A DNA stretch of 64,000 nucleotides from Torymus aiolomorphi (lineage: Eukaryota; Arthropoda; Insecta; Hymenoptera; Torymidae), in contig CM070875.1 in NCBI GenBank assembly GCA_036365515.1, positions 101,849,128 to 101,913,127 of the forward strand, written 5' to 3'. Numbering within the stretch: position 1 is the stretch's first letter; each line of letters begins with the position of its first letter. Both the position numbers and the translations under genes were made by a program. This document shows positions 24,317-38,530 of the stretch, one piece after another. The notes below the pieces were generated by a model that saw only the letters and a list, made by a program, of their open reading frames with translations, made no database searches and had not been told where the DNA came from.

Positions 24317-24530
24317 GCCATATTACGGGGATAAAAACGTATACATTCACCATACTTTGAACACATTGCAATAGTATGGGGACTGTTCCCATAATAAAAT
24401 GGACGAATCCACTATTTCGGGGGCAAATCTAGTCAATAACCTGAGGGTCCATATTTCTTTAGTCACGTTAACATAGGCCAACTCTGAGAGAAAGCTGTTG
24501 ATGTCTCCATAATATAGTCAATAATCAACG
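24317..24530. repeat. variable-word cassette A0
   Basis: Lies between two (AT)n blocks. The core TATTTCTTTAGTCA is at about 24450-24464. Words around it are of the type ATTACGGGGA, ACTATTTCGGGGGCA and AGTATGGGGACTG. AGTCAATAACC and GGGTCCAT before the core are shared with cassette E1. Confidence 0.7.
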
Positions 24531-24578
24531 TATATATATATATATATATATATATATATATATATATATATATATATA

Positions 24579-24785
24579 TTTATGTTTTATGTTAGTTTCC
24601 AGGACATTCCAGATGTTTAACGTTGGTTTCGGGGATATTTGTTAGTTTTGGGGACAGTCCCTGAATCTACATATGTTTAACGTCAGTTTTGAGGACATCG
24701 GCCCCCATAAGAGACATTATTTCTTTAGTCAAGTATAGGTATACAGTAACATCGAGTCCTGGGAACTAACGTTATACAAGTTTTT
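24579..24785. repeat. variable-word cassette A1 (word TTAGTTTTGGGGACA)
   Basis: Core ATTATTTCTTTAGTCA at 24716-24731. Words: TTAGTTTCCAGGACA, TTGGTTTCGGGGATA, TTAGTTTTGGGGACA, TCAGTTTTGAGGACA, and an inverted one at the right edge (GTCCTGGGAACTAAC). Flanked by (AT)n on both sides. A near-identical copy is at 38047-38250. Confidence 0.85.
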
Positions 24786-24805
24786 ATATATATATATATA
24801 TATAA

Positions 24806-25030
24806 AGATCTGCAACGGTTCGTTCCGGGACGCAAAAATGTATATAACAGTTATTTCTGGGACGCGCTCGTTATTTCCGGGACGTCCCGGAAAACCTGTG
24901 TCTGCAACTGTTATTTCTGGGACGCGATATTAGTCCCTCACCCCAGGGATATTATTTCTTTAGTCAAGTGTATTGTCTCAACTCTGGACGACGAAACTCT
25001 AGGTCCCAGAAATAACACTTGTAGGTACTT
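24806..25030. repeat. variable-word cassette B1 (word GTTATTTCTGGGACG)
   Basis: Core ATTATTTCTTTAGTCA at 24951-24966. Words: GTTCGTTCCGGGACG, GTTATTTCTGGGACG, GTTATTTCCGGGACG, again GTTATTTCTGGGACG, and an inverted GTCCCAGAAATAAC near the right end. (AT)n on both sides. Confidence 0.85.
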
Positions 25031-25118
25031 ATATATATATATATATATATATATATATATATATATATATATATATATATATATATATATATATATATAT
25101 ATATATATATATATATAT
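25031..25118. repeat. (AT)n microsatellite left of the Penelope element
   Basis: About 88 bp of AT dinucleotide. Confidence 0.95.
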
Positions 25119-25341
25119 CATTAAAAATATTACTTATGTCGACTGCAATTTAATATCACTGATAAGAATTTTTCCATCGGTCTTACAGTCTTACAAATTA
25201 AATTAAAATAATTAATATTTATGGCAGTCAGATTGCCCTTGTTTATAATCACCCCCGCAGAATCTGAAATAAAAACTTAATTAAAATCTGGAAAAAACTT
25301 TGTTAGCAAAGGACGATCTGACTGCCCACCACCACCACATT

Positions 25342-25381
25342 GTCCGACGTTTCGAGCCTGCTCCGGCTCCTCCTCAGAGAC
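25342..25381 (-). ncRNA. hammerhead ribozyme motif of the Penelope-like element
   Basis: The minus strand reads GTCT-CTGAGGAG, helix II GAGCC/GGCTC with loop GGAGCA, then GAAACGTC and GGAC. This fits the hammerhead core CUGANGA ... GAAA with a short helix III and cleavage after GUC. Flanking GTCT and GGAC can form helix I. Hammerheads are known in Penelope-like terminal repeats. The opposite arm holds only the second half (27214-27232). Confidence 0.65.
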
Positions 25382-35542: not shown

Positions 35543-35742
35543 GGCCCAGGGAGGCCAAAGGGCTCGAAGAAGAAGCCTGCACCTGCCGATGTCGGGCCAA
35601 TTAGCCCCCGTCGAACCCGAGCGTTCGAAAAGCGCTAACTGTGTCGTCCAGAAATTGTGCCGTCCGTACTAACCCGTGTTCGTCCTTGTTTTCCGATCCT
35701 CAGTCTCACCAATCTCCGGGGTCAATTTACCTGTTGCAGGAT

Positions 35743-36740
35743 ATGCAGGGCCTGACTCCAGAAATAGTAGAGACGGCGAAGAAGGTGATAGCTGGATTAA
35801 TCCAGTGCAACCCTGACCCCGCTGTCATTGACTTCCTGGAACAGGTAGTGGAGGGCATAGTCGTGGTGACACAGGCACCACCGCCAGTGGAAGAGCCCTC
35901 CACACTTGTCATAGAGGAGTTAGAGGCGCCGGAACCAAGAAGGGGACCTTCGGGACCAACCGACGCAGGCGTTGGCCCGTCCCCGCTCCGGCGACCTCAT
36001 CCTCCGAAGGAGCAGCGGGAGAAGAGCGGGGCTCGGCCAGAAGAAGCACCAGTCTAGCCGATTGGTGCCGGCCGAGTTCCCGAAGAGGTAGCGGCTCGAG
36101 CCCATCATTGTGCGCCGGACGTTGACGCCGGCGCGGCTCGGGCCGCACAAGGAAAAGAAGGAGATGCTCCGACCCAGGCCCCAAAAGGAGCACCGACCGA
36201 TGGAGTCGGTGTGGCCTGGGTCCCGGTGGAGCAGGCACTAGAGGAGACGCGGCGCCTCAGCAAGTCCTCGCGCGCTGCGGAGGACGCTGCCCTGGCCGCA
36301 CTGGAGGATTTTCTCCAGTGCCACGGTGAGGCCGGTGAGCGGCAAGCCGGTAAATGGGTCGGAATGGCCCAAGGCCGGCGAGAAGAGCTCGCGGCCGCCG
36401 CAGAGGCCAGGGCCGCCAGGCTGCGCCGCGCCGCCTTGCAGAAGGAGGAGGAGGCTCGTCTGGCACGTGCGCAGGAGCGCATGGAAGAGGCCAGGCGAGC
36501 CAGGAAAAAGGCGAAGGAGGCGGCGCGTCGGGCCAAGGAGGAGGCCCAGCGTCGTCTCCTACGAGAAGAGGAGCGCCTCCAAAGGGCGCTCGAAGAGGAG
36601 AAGGCGGCCCGGGAGACGTTAAATGCACAGGCGCTTCCCCGGTGCTTCATGTGTGGCAAGCTTGGGGTAAAGAAGTCGAATTACTGCCCCAACCAAGCTC
36701 GCCACAAGGGGCGCCGGACTTACTCCCGGGCCAGCTGTAG
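35743..36740 (+). pseudogene. Gypsy third ORF: spliced coiled-coil protein with C-terminal Cys motif, one stop
   Basis: Follows an acceptor (ATTTACCTGTTGCAG at 35739), then ATG at 35743. The acidic/proline-rich N-terminal domain (EIVETAKKVIAGLI, VIDFLEQVVEGIVVV) is followed by in-frame TAG at 36055-36057. The same frame continues with LEETRRLSKSSRAAEDAALA, about 100 residues of Glu/Arg/Ala coiled coil, then CFMCGKLGVKKSNYC and a basic end near 36740. No signal peptide or transmembrane segment, so it is not an envelope protein although it sits where env would. Similarity to the minus-strand fragment at 30432-31264 shows it is a conserved part of this element family. Function unknown; nucleic-acid binding is plausible. 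Confidence 0.65.
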
Positions 36741-37976
36741 AGGACTGAGCCCCGAAGTGTTTCTTTTTTTTGTTTTTTATTTAATAAAAATTAAAAAAAA
36801 AAAGATAATGGGTGACTCCGATTCTTATACTTCCCTTGTCCAAAATTCCTTCCCGAAAGGCTCCACCGAATTAACCTTATTTTCAGGTACGACGACGGCC
36901 ATGGATTGCAGAGCTGCTCGCGGTTAGGTGCTGCTGAGTTAGATAATTCGAGATTCGAATTACCCGCGCCGAGCAGGCATGCTCACCGGGGGCGCGAGCG
37001 CTCGAGCATCCTGACTGGATTAGAACGGTCTCGCGACGCGTAATATGCCCGTCGCGTACCCGCGAAGCTGCTACGGCTTTATAGGATTCACGGCAGCCAT
37101 CTCCGTGTCTACCATAGCGCGTAAAACATCTCCTCCGTGTCTCTCCTGAGTTTACTTGTCCGCGCCGTCCTATCTTTCTTTGTGAGACCCCGCGAATGTA
37201 GTGGAGGCGCCGCATATAGTGTACGTGTGAAAGAGAGACAGAGAGAGAGAGCGATCCCGAGTCGCGTGACCCGCACGAGACTGCGAGCGACGACCCAATA
37301 CAGCTAGCAAAAGAGAGAGAGAGAAAGAGAGCGCAACTGCTGTGCGAGCGACAGGGAGCGGGAGAGAGTCGAGTGCACCGGCTGCTCCTTCCTAACGTAA
37401 GTTTTCTACTCTCCTCTCGCGGGTTTATTGTAAAGGCTCGCACGAAAATCGCCCCGTGCAAGCTTTCTGTGCCGTGTACGTGCGGGTGTGTGTCCGCCCG
37501 CCGTACTTTAACACCGCGCACGAAATTAGCAGCTTCGCCGCGCGCCGTGTAGTTCGCGCGTTTGAATATTAACGGTCGCGCGCCAACTAACTCATAATTG
37601 TTCTAATCAGCACGTGCGTTGTGCTTGTAGTGATTAGTGATTTTAAATATACTGTGATATCTAGTTACTCGTCGCGTTGTTCATTACAACCTGTCCTTCT
37701 CCCGGATACCGCCGCGTCCGCGGGAAAATGACTCCGCCGGTCGTTTTCATATCTGAGCATAGCGGCCGCGCGTTTTACTCTTCGAGCGCGCGCTTTTCAC
37801 TGAGCGATCCAATTAGTTGGAAAGCGAAGTTCGTGTGCGATCTTCGCGTTGTTTTCGGGATTCCAGGGGCATATCCCCGGGTAAGTCATTTTAGTCTGAC
37901 ACCCGCGGCACCGTATTCTAGGGCATCGCTGGCCTGTGGCTTATTGGGATTTTTCCCCACTAGCCATCCCGTTACA
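36741..37976 (+). other. probable 3' LTR or leader of the Gypsy element
   Basis: Starts about TGTAGAGGACTGAG (36736) and ends about CCCGTTACA (37976), just before an AT repeat. GC-rich, with GA tracts at 37226-37335, donor-like AACGTAAGTTTTC near 37395 and GGGTAAGTC near 37878. No second copy in the window, so the LTR call is weak. A 138-codon frame at 37677-38087 ends in poly-YI and is unlikely to be real. Confidence 0.35.
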
Positions 37977-38046
37977 ATATATATATATATATATATATAT
38001 ATATATATATATATATATATATATATATATATATATATATATATAT
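37977..38046. repeat. (AT)n microsatellite
   Basis: About 70 bp of AT. Similar blocks at 38251-38325 and 38531-38618. Confidence 0.95.
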
Positions 38047-38250
38047 TTATGTTTTATGTTAGTTTCCAGGACATTCCAGATGTTTAACGTTGGTTTTGGG
38101 GACATTTGTTAGTTTTGGGGACAGTCCCTGAATCTACATATGTTTAACGTCAGTTTTGAGGACATCGGCCCCCATAAGAGACATTATTTCTTTAATCACG
38201 TATAGGTATACAGTAACACGGGGTCCTGGGAACTAACGTTATACAAGTTT
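38047..38250. repeat. variable-word cassette A2
   Basis: Almost the same sequence as A1 (24579-24785), 13 kb away, with core ATTATTTCTTTAATCA at 38182-38197. Flanked by AT blocks like the rest. Confidence 0.88.
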
Positions 38251-38325
38251 ATATATATATATATATATATATATATATATATATATATATATATATATAT
38301 ATATATATATATATATAAATATATG

Positions 38326-38530
38326 AAACGCTAGTTATGCAGACACTTTCCGAAATTTAAATAGACTTATGCAGACAGAGACCGACTTATGCAGACGTCA
38401 GCATAAGTAGAGAGATTATTTCTTTAGTCACGCTAGACTTGTGCAGACACTTGTATAAACCGTACTACACTTATGCAGACAGGTCACGTGGTCTTATACA
38501 TTGGTGTCAGCATAAGTCCATGTTTATATG
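38326..38530. repeat. variable-word cassette C2 (word ACTTATGCAGACA)
   Basis: Core ATTATTTCTTTAGTCA at 38415-38430. Words: AGTTATGCAGACA, ACTTATGCAGACA (three times), ACTTGTGCAGACA, and inverted GTCAGCATAAGTCC near the right end. Related word to C1 but consistently GCAGAC, where C1 mostly has GCGGAC. Confidence 0.86.

What the first reader, a model, noticed from the sequence alone, without database searches (positions are those of the whole stretch)
24317..38530. A family of cassettes with one shared core and a different repeated word in each copy
At least eight segments of about 200-240 bp (24317, 24579, 24806, 27578, 27918, 29414, 38047, 38326, plus partial 28190) share the core TTATTTCTTTAGTCA and lie beside AT-type microsatellites. 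Each is built from four to six copies of its own word: TTAGTTTTGGGGACA, GTTATTTCTGGGACG, ACTTATGCGGACA, ACTTATGCAGACA, CTTTTGAGGATC or TTTATGGAGCCCG. The words look like variants of one pattern, roughly TTNTGNGGAC, but are nearly uniform inside a copy and differ between copies. Most copies end with an inverted word. So word identity seems homogenised within a copy while the core is kept by all. I know no transposon family described this way. Possible readings: a hairpin-ended mobile element with internal gene conversion, or a satellite that spreads with AT repeats.
Basis: partly seen in the sequence, partly recalled or inferred. Interest (0 to 1): 0.88.

Follow-up and report, generated by a model that had tools for sequence, protein, structure and literature searches.

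The report
Microsatellite-dwelling jumping DNA with swappable words
An animal genome carries thousands of copies of one 15-letter core inside tiny, gene-less jumping elements, many of them sitting in TA repeats, and each family repeats its own short word at fixed distances of about 3, 2 and 4 turns of the DNA helix, which looks like a row of landing sites for a family-specific enzyme.

Summary
The window holds eight core-bearing elements (five exact cores, three with one substitution) and one core-less partial copy, in or beside TA arrays. The exact core occurs 13,811 times in this 1.08 Gb genome, its backward control 64 times. Families share a backbone around the core. A new regularity: inside an element the word recurs at 31-33, 19-20 and 40-43 bp. 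A scan blind to word identity finds 48 such arrays in 330 kb; ten other spacing sets find 0-1 each. Words differ by family, and often by site, and are inherited with the family, so homogenisation inside each copy is not supported. Core-bearing relatives outside TA arrays have inverted ends and 9-bp target duplications: 4 of 7 elements, 16 of 20 copies of one family. Best reading: non-autonomous DNA transposons of the Mutator (MULE) kind, an animal counterpart of plant TA-microsatellite MULEs (Micron, MuTAnT, SaTar). Words would be helically phased, family-specific transposase sites, the core a constant second site. No autonomous partner was found: 4 of 150 listed MULE-domain hits were read, none with a phased word array. 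The word-enzyme link is inferred.

The parts
24317..24530 (+). Element A, word about TATTTCGGGGAC; core with one substitution 24451-24465; words 24321, 24372, 24413 (+), 24385 and 24503 (-)
   Evidence: TA arrays on both sides
24580..24784 (+). Element B, word about GTTTTGGGGACA; exact core 24717-24731; words start 24595, 24626, 24645, 24686
   Evidence: spacings 31, 19, 41
24805..25029 (+). Element C, word TTATTTCTGGGACG; exact core 24952-24966; words 24819, 24851, 24871, 24911 (+), 25002 (-)
   Evidence: spacings 32, 20, 40
27578..27808 (+). Element D, word ACTTATGCGGAC; exact core 27682-27696; words 27592, 27624, 27644, 27703, 27735, 27768
   Evidence: spacings 32, 20, then 32, 33 after the core
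27917..28139 (+). Element E, word CTTTTGAGGAT; core with one substitution 28064-28078; words 27929, 27961, 27980, 28022 (+), 27991 and 28112 (-)
   Evidence: spacings 32, 19, 42
28184..28321 (+). Partial element F, word TTATTTCTGGGACG, cut before the core; words 28204, 28236, 28256, 28296
   Evidence: spacings 32, 20, 40
29414..29655 (+). Element G, word TTTATGGAGCCC; exact core 29567-29581; words 29437, 29468, 29487, 29527 (+), 29499 and 29627 (-)
   Evidence: spacings 31, 19, 40; lies at the centre of a large inverted repeat
38047..38249 (+). Element H, same family as B; core with one substitution 38184-38198; words 38062, 38093, 38112, 38153
   Evidence: spacings 31, 19, 41
38318..38532 (+). 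Element I, word ACTTATGCAGAC; exact core 38416-38430; words 38333, 38365, 38385, 38437, 38469 (+), 38397 and 38506 (-)
   Evidence: spacings 32, 20
24256..24316 (.). TA array, an example of the joints; the others next to elements are 24531-24579, 24785-24804, 25030-25118, 27419-27577, 27809-27901, 28160-28183, 29656-29686, 37978-38046, 38250-38317, 38533-38618

Best explanation
These are non-autonomous DNA transposons (MITEs) of the Mutator-like (MULE) kind, many of which sit in TA microsatellites. SHOWN: families share a backbone and core but carry different words; the words stand about 3, 2 and 4 helical turns apart, usually with an inverted word near the other end; core-bearing relatives outside TA arrays have inverted ends and 9-bp target duplications. 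INFERRED: the words are binding sites of a family-specific transposase DNA-binding domain, set on one face of the helix so that several protomers assemble at the word-rich end and pair with the single site at the other end. The core is a constant second site, bound by a shared part of the transposase or by a host factor. Word sets differ in concert between families because only an element whose sites all fit its transposase moves; chimaeras stay behind as dead copies.
For: 13,811 exact cores against 64 control matches. Phased arrays: 48 at 32/20/42 against 0-1 at ten other spacing sets; all three spacings in 12 and the first two in 16 of 19 family representatives. Words match inside an element 0.92 against 0.21 per 11-mer between families. 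Homologous backbone. 9-bp duplications: 4 of 7 non-microsatellite elements, 0 of 42 mismatched flank pairs reach 7 bp; 16 of 20 copies of the L019 family, 0 of 380 mismatched pairs. Long inverted arms with a core in each in L064. MULE-domain genes exist in this genome: 150 matches from 150 scored of 338 candidates. Plant TA-microsatellite MULEs behave alike. A chimaera exists (L049:599).
Against: No autonomous partner: 4 of 150 MULE-domain hits were read within 2.4 kb and showed no phased word array and only 3-mismatch core matches. A Mutator (PF20700) gene near a core in L035 shows no inverted ends tying it to the core. The 9-bp duplications were seen in relatives outside TA arrays; for the window's own families TA arrays hide any duplication. 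3 of 7 such elements and 4 of 20 copies lack an exact duplication, and 9 of 380 mismatched pairs match at 8 of 9. The tie between microsatellite families and relatives rests mainly on the core and a similar layout. No empty site was found. 7 of 19 families match a sister family's words at least as well as their own.
Confidence: 0.6

Rival explanations
1. P-superfamily or other THAP-type transposons (like Galileo), whose zinc finger reads repeated short sites; words such as TTTCGGGGACA resemble the recalled THAP motif TxxGGGCA.
For: Galileo has several THAP sites per end and subfamily-specific binding (PMC3688188, passages). Word look-alike (motif recalled, not from a call).
Against: Target duplications of relatives are 9 bp: 16 of 20 exact at width 9, 0 at widths 7 and 8; P-type elements make 7-8 bp (recalled). 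THAP genes were not searched.
Confidence: 0.12
2. Rolling-circle elements of the Helentron / DINE-1 type with palindromic subterminal repeats.
For: Palindromic word pairs, inverted word at the other end, microsatellites and high copy number resemble HINEs (PMC4067079, passages). A PIF1-like helicase fragment lies in the window.
Against: Helentrons insert at TT; the relatives here make 9-bp duplications. The Rep search (PF14214) did not complete, so a partner is not excluded.
Confidence: 0.08
3. A satellite or gene-conversion system in which words are homogenised inside each copy and spread with TA repeats.
For: Words are more alike inside an element than between families; one family is uniform at all five sites; a short tandem exists in L031 and a chimaera in L049.
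Against: Site-specific consensus words in three of four families; same-change pairs 6 of 106 within against 54 of 1790 between copies. Dispersed copies with fixed ends and, in relatives, duplications.
Confidence: 0.07
4. The elements are moved by the machinery of Penelope-like or other retroelements that also lie between TA arrays.
For: A Penelope-like element at about 25119-27417 is flanked by TA arrays on both sides, next to elements C and D.
Against: Inverted words and phased arrays are not expected of reverse-transcribed copies; relatives have exact 9-bp duplications and inverted ends.
Confidence: 0.04

Closest known systems
SaTar elements of guayule and rice, including Micron (PMC5907723; abstract and passages)
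   Same: Small non-autonomous elements flanked by simple repeats, often (TA)n; arrays of unrelated elements joined through microsatellites; assigned to MULEs; duplications of about 9-10 bp outside microsatellites.
   Different: 400-1700 bp with clear inverted ends, in plants; the passages that I saw mention no constant core and no phased words.
MuTAnT of Medicago (PMC4486113; passages)
   Same: MULE family that targets TA microsatellites; 14 of 218 copies outside perfect arrays, with 9-nt duplications.
   Different: Plant, one family with an autonomous member and long foldback ends; here many word families on one core, no autonomous member found.
Galileo (P superfamily; PMC3688188; passages)
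   Same: Several transposase sites in repetitive ends, and binding that depends on the subfamily.
   Different: Long inverted ends and a THAP protein of the P superfamily; here 9-bp duplications in relatives.
DINE-1 / HINE / Helentrons (PMC4067079; passages)
   Same: Very abundant gene-less elements with palindromic subterminal repeats and microsatellites.
   Different: Insertion at TT; here 9-bp duplications in relatives.
ATon of Aedes aegypti (PMC3422177; abstract and outline)
   Same: Abundant insect non-autonomous elements with an AT-specific target.
   Different: Inserts at one AT dinucleotide; no core-and-word system in what I saw.

Membership tests
Mutator-like (MULE) non-autonomous element | Target duplication of about 9 bp | tested here: met
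   In core-bearing relatives only: 4 of 7 elements, 16 of 20 copies of one family.
Mutator-like (MULE) non-autonomous element | Target duplication around the window's own TA-array families | not testable with these tools
   Flanking TA arrays hide it.
Mutator-like (MULE) non-autonomous element | G/C-rich inverted ends | tested here: inconclusive
   L019 and L055 families end CGGC.../...GGCC, L064 has 125-nt arms at 90%; the TA-array families show only a subterminal inverted word.
Mutator-like (MULE) non-autonomous element | Autonomous partner with the same ends and a MULE transposase | tested here: inconclusive
   150 MULE-domain matches exist; 4 of them read, none with a phased word array.
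SaTar / MuTAnT / Micron (TA-microsatellite MULEs) | Flanked by TA arrays, several different elements joined by arrays | tested here: met
   44 of 88 core matches have simple repeats on both sides and 73 of 88 on at least one; clusters 24256-25118, 27419-28183 and 37978-38618.
SaTar / MuTAnT / Micron (TA-microsatellite MULEs) | Empty sites are bare TA arrays | tested here: inconclusive
   No empty site among 45 blocks within the fetched DNA; no second individual available.
Helentron / DINE-1 | Insertion at TT without target duplication | tested here: not met
   9-bp duplications in core-bearing relatives.
Helentron / DINE-1 | Rep/helicase partner | not tested
   PF14214 search did not complete.
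P superfamily (Galileo) | 7-8 bp target duplication (recalled) | tested here: not met
   Widths 7 and 8 give 0 of 20 exact, width 9 gives 16 of 20, in relatives.
Satellite with internal homogenisation | Private word changes shared between sites of one copy | tested here: not met
   6 of 106 pairs within copies against 54 of 1790 between copies.

The most novel reading that the evidence does not exclude
A two-key recognition code: one constant core site and one changeable word that is read at fixed helical positions, so that new transposon families arise by changing the word at all sites while spacing, backbone and core stay. It would be a natural series of transposase-site co-evolution experiments inside one animal genome.
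Probability: 0.35. Interest if true: 0.82.

Novelty: new variant of a known kind. Interest (0 to 1): 0.62.

Why it matters
How a transposase and its binding sites change together is hard to study where a family offers one pair of ends. Here the 19 sampled family representatives share a core and, in 16, the same first spacings, while the word differs, so matching of word to enzyme could be tested directly. It would also extend TA-microsatellite residence of MULE-like elements, which my searches showed only in plants, to an animal, and would account for most TA arrays of this window (11 of 12).

Tried and rejected
Known RNA families: at gathering scores only a histone stem-loop far away; at a loose threshold only matches below gathering scores, mostly on the microsatellites. 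Core in the loop of a conserved hairpin: single folds differ between families, although AGAGT/ACTCT flanks, and word 4 with the last inverted word, can pair; no covariation test was run. Core in viral contigs: none for one degenerate pattern. The PF20700 gene near a core in L035: no inverted ends linking it to the core. Gene conversion within copies. Empty sites inside the fetched DNA: none among 45 blocks. MULE genes as carriers of words: 4 of 150 read; only a GA-rich low-complexity match to the spacing and core matches with 3 substitutions. The places of the L019 and L064 families were not systematically compared with the MULE places. A genome-wide count of phased arrays and a copy list for one microsatellite family were asked for and never answered. 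The host species was not identified.
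Full report
OBSERVATION. Exact cores TTATTTCTTTAGTCA start at 24717, 24952, 27682, 29567 and 38416; cores with one substitution at 24451, 28064 and 38184; the copy near 28190 stops before the core. 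In the host genome (1.08 Gb, 21 contigs) the exact core occurs 6961 + 6850 times, its backward control 32 + 32 times. From the window and L001-L048 I took 88 matches with up to two substitutions (64 exact); they fell into 29 clusters, some of them chance matches.

FAMILIES. Copies in different places share boundaries and sequence within a family: cluster 2 joins the 24580 and 38047 elements with copies in L004, L006, L020, L031 and L035. Around the core the 19 representatives align beyond the 15-mer: roughly AGAGTC..TAACCC.GAGGG..A, core, then in many ..AACTCTGG.GAAA..ACTATAG and the inverted word. Long and short backbones exist, and similar words occur on both (TTTTGAGGAT in L048 short and L006 long; GTTAGTTT..GGACA in L004 short and L007 long; TCTGGGACG in the window short and L038 long). 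So word and backbone vary separately. L049:599 is a chimaera of two families.

SPACING. Among 19 family representatives, word starts upstream of the core are spaced 31-33, 19-20 and 40-43 bp in 12; the first two spacings hold in 16; the exceptions are the TTTCTGGTAACC (31, 60), GCACTTTGAGGAG and TTTTCAGGGGC representatives. Of the 15 with a simple-repeat boundary upstream, 13 have their first word 10-17 bp from it. In the window, 8 of 9 elements show the first two spacings; element A shows their sum, 51. A scan that knows no word and asks only for an 11-mer that recurs at about +32, +20 and +42 finds 48 arrays in 330 kb after removal of most simple repeats (one of the 48, TTTCTGTCTCT, still looks like one); 45 have a core within 450 bp. 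Ten other spacing sets find 0 or 1 each; the eleventh, 42/20/32, which reads the same arrays on the other strand, finds 32. The DNA was fetched for the core and the arrays include many copies of the same families, so neither the link to the core nor the number 48 is an independent count; the contrast between spacings is the point. At about 10.5 bp per turn these are 3, 2 and 4 turns (inference).

WORD HOMOGENEITY. Words match far better inside an element than between families on average (0.92 against 0.21 matches per 11-mer), but 7 of 19 match a sister family even better than themselves, so words form clans. Of four families with 8-17 copies, one is uniform at all five sites (TTTATGGAGCCC), and three have a different consensus at each site, such as GTTTCCAGGACA, GTTTCGGGGACA, GTTTTGGGGACA and GTTTTGAGGACA. 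Identical changes at two sites are 6 of 106 pairs within copies and 54 of 1790 between copies (5.7% against 3.0%), and three of the six come from one related subgroup. So words are inherited with the family; at most a weak trace of homogenisation within copies is left.

WHAT KIND OF ELEMENT. Seven fetched places hold core-bearing elements outside TA arrays. Four have exact 9-bp direct repeats right outside their inverted ends (L019, L028, L055, L064); L002, L059 and L061 do not; 0 of 42 mismatched flank pairs reach 7 bp (the ends were set with the duplications in view, an ambiguity of 1-2 bp). The L019 query of 248 bp then found 900 candidates, 40 of them scored: 36 of the 40 align from base 1 to 248 (one is the query itself) and four miss up to six bases at one end, at 96-100% identity, which confirms the ends independently. 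I fetched 20 of these 40: 16 have an exact 9-bp duplication, two match at 8 of 9, two have none; of 380 mismatched pairs 0 match at 9 and 9 at 8 of 9; 19 of 20 keep the exact core. L064 has inverted arms of 125 nt, 90% complementary, with a core in each; 40 scored relatives of its arm gave 79 matches, so nearly all have both arms. Nine-bp duplications and G/C ends point to the Mutator superfamily (PMC4486113 and PMC13359780, passages). MULE-domain genes exist here: 150 matches (150 of 338 candidates scored), best E 5.9e-16, many open frames above 400 aa. I read four of them with about 2.2-2.5 kb on each side: no phased word array apart from a GA-rich low-complexity match, and core matches only at 3 substitutions.

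MECHANISM. The layout is that of transposon ends with several enzyme sites: about four words on one side and one inverted word on the other, on one helical face. I propose that each word set is read by one family's transposase and that the core is a constant second site. Precedent for several, subfamily-specific sites is Galileo (PMC3688188, passages); precedent for TA arrays is SaTar and MuTAnT. The core's role is the weakest part: a host factor, a shared transposase surface and a promoter element all remain possible.

TA ARRAYS. 11 of 12 arrays of at least 8 units in the window adjoin a core element, and 59 of 63 arrays of at least 12 units in L009-L048, which were chosen for the core. The outer flanks of blocks often match other fetched copies right up to the array, so arrays seem to act as joints between unrelated repeats, as described for SaTar. 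Whether arrays pre-exist or grow after insertion is not settled.

LITERATURE LIMITS. The searches listed plant TA-microsatellite MULEs and no animal ones; most subscription papers and all repeat databases were out of reach. PMC5907723 was seen as abstract and passages; PMC4486113, PMC13359780, PMC4067079 and PMC3688188 as passages; PMC3422177 as abstract and outline; the rest as listings.

Noticed in passing
window 25119-27417: A Penelope-like element between two TA arrays: reverse transcriptase 26290-27252 (-) and a GIY-YIG domain just under its cut-off 25490-26314 (-); its flanks look like inverted copies of each other.
   Followed up: partly
window 28485-30554: Arms of 731 nt, 95% complementary (28485-29215 and 29824-30554), with shorter inner arms; element G lies near the centre.
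   Followed up: partly
window 57000-63200 and 274-1971: Open frames of a virus-like (Polinton/adintovirus-type, recalled) stretch; 58688-59278 (-) matches the adenovirus endoprotease family weakly (E 1.3e-4). Described only.
   Followed up: no
window 40032-40649: PIF1-like helicase open frame (-), E 3.6e-37, perhaps a Helitron remnant.
   Followed up: no
window 2981-3026: Histone 3' stem-loop on the minus strand.
   Followed up: no
window 23278-24030: Open frame that looks like cytoplasmic dynein heavy chain (recognised by recall), next to the first TA array.
   Followed up: no
L034:2495-2740: A long-backbone element breaks off inside its core (GGGTCATTA) straight into a TA array; perhaps the core can seed or join arrays.
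   Followed up: no
L010, L012, L013, L033, L047 and window 38619: A different repeat whose end looks like CTAGGGGGTACCCCC or similar starts right at TA arrays in several loci.
   Followed up: no
L035:2-1717: Open frame of a Mutator-like transposase (PF20700, E 6.8e-70) about 0.8 kb from a core copy; no link to the core was found.
   Followed up: yes
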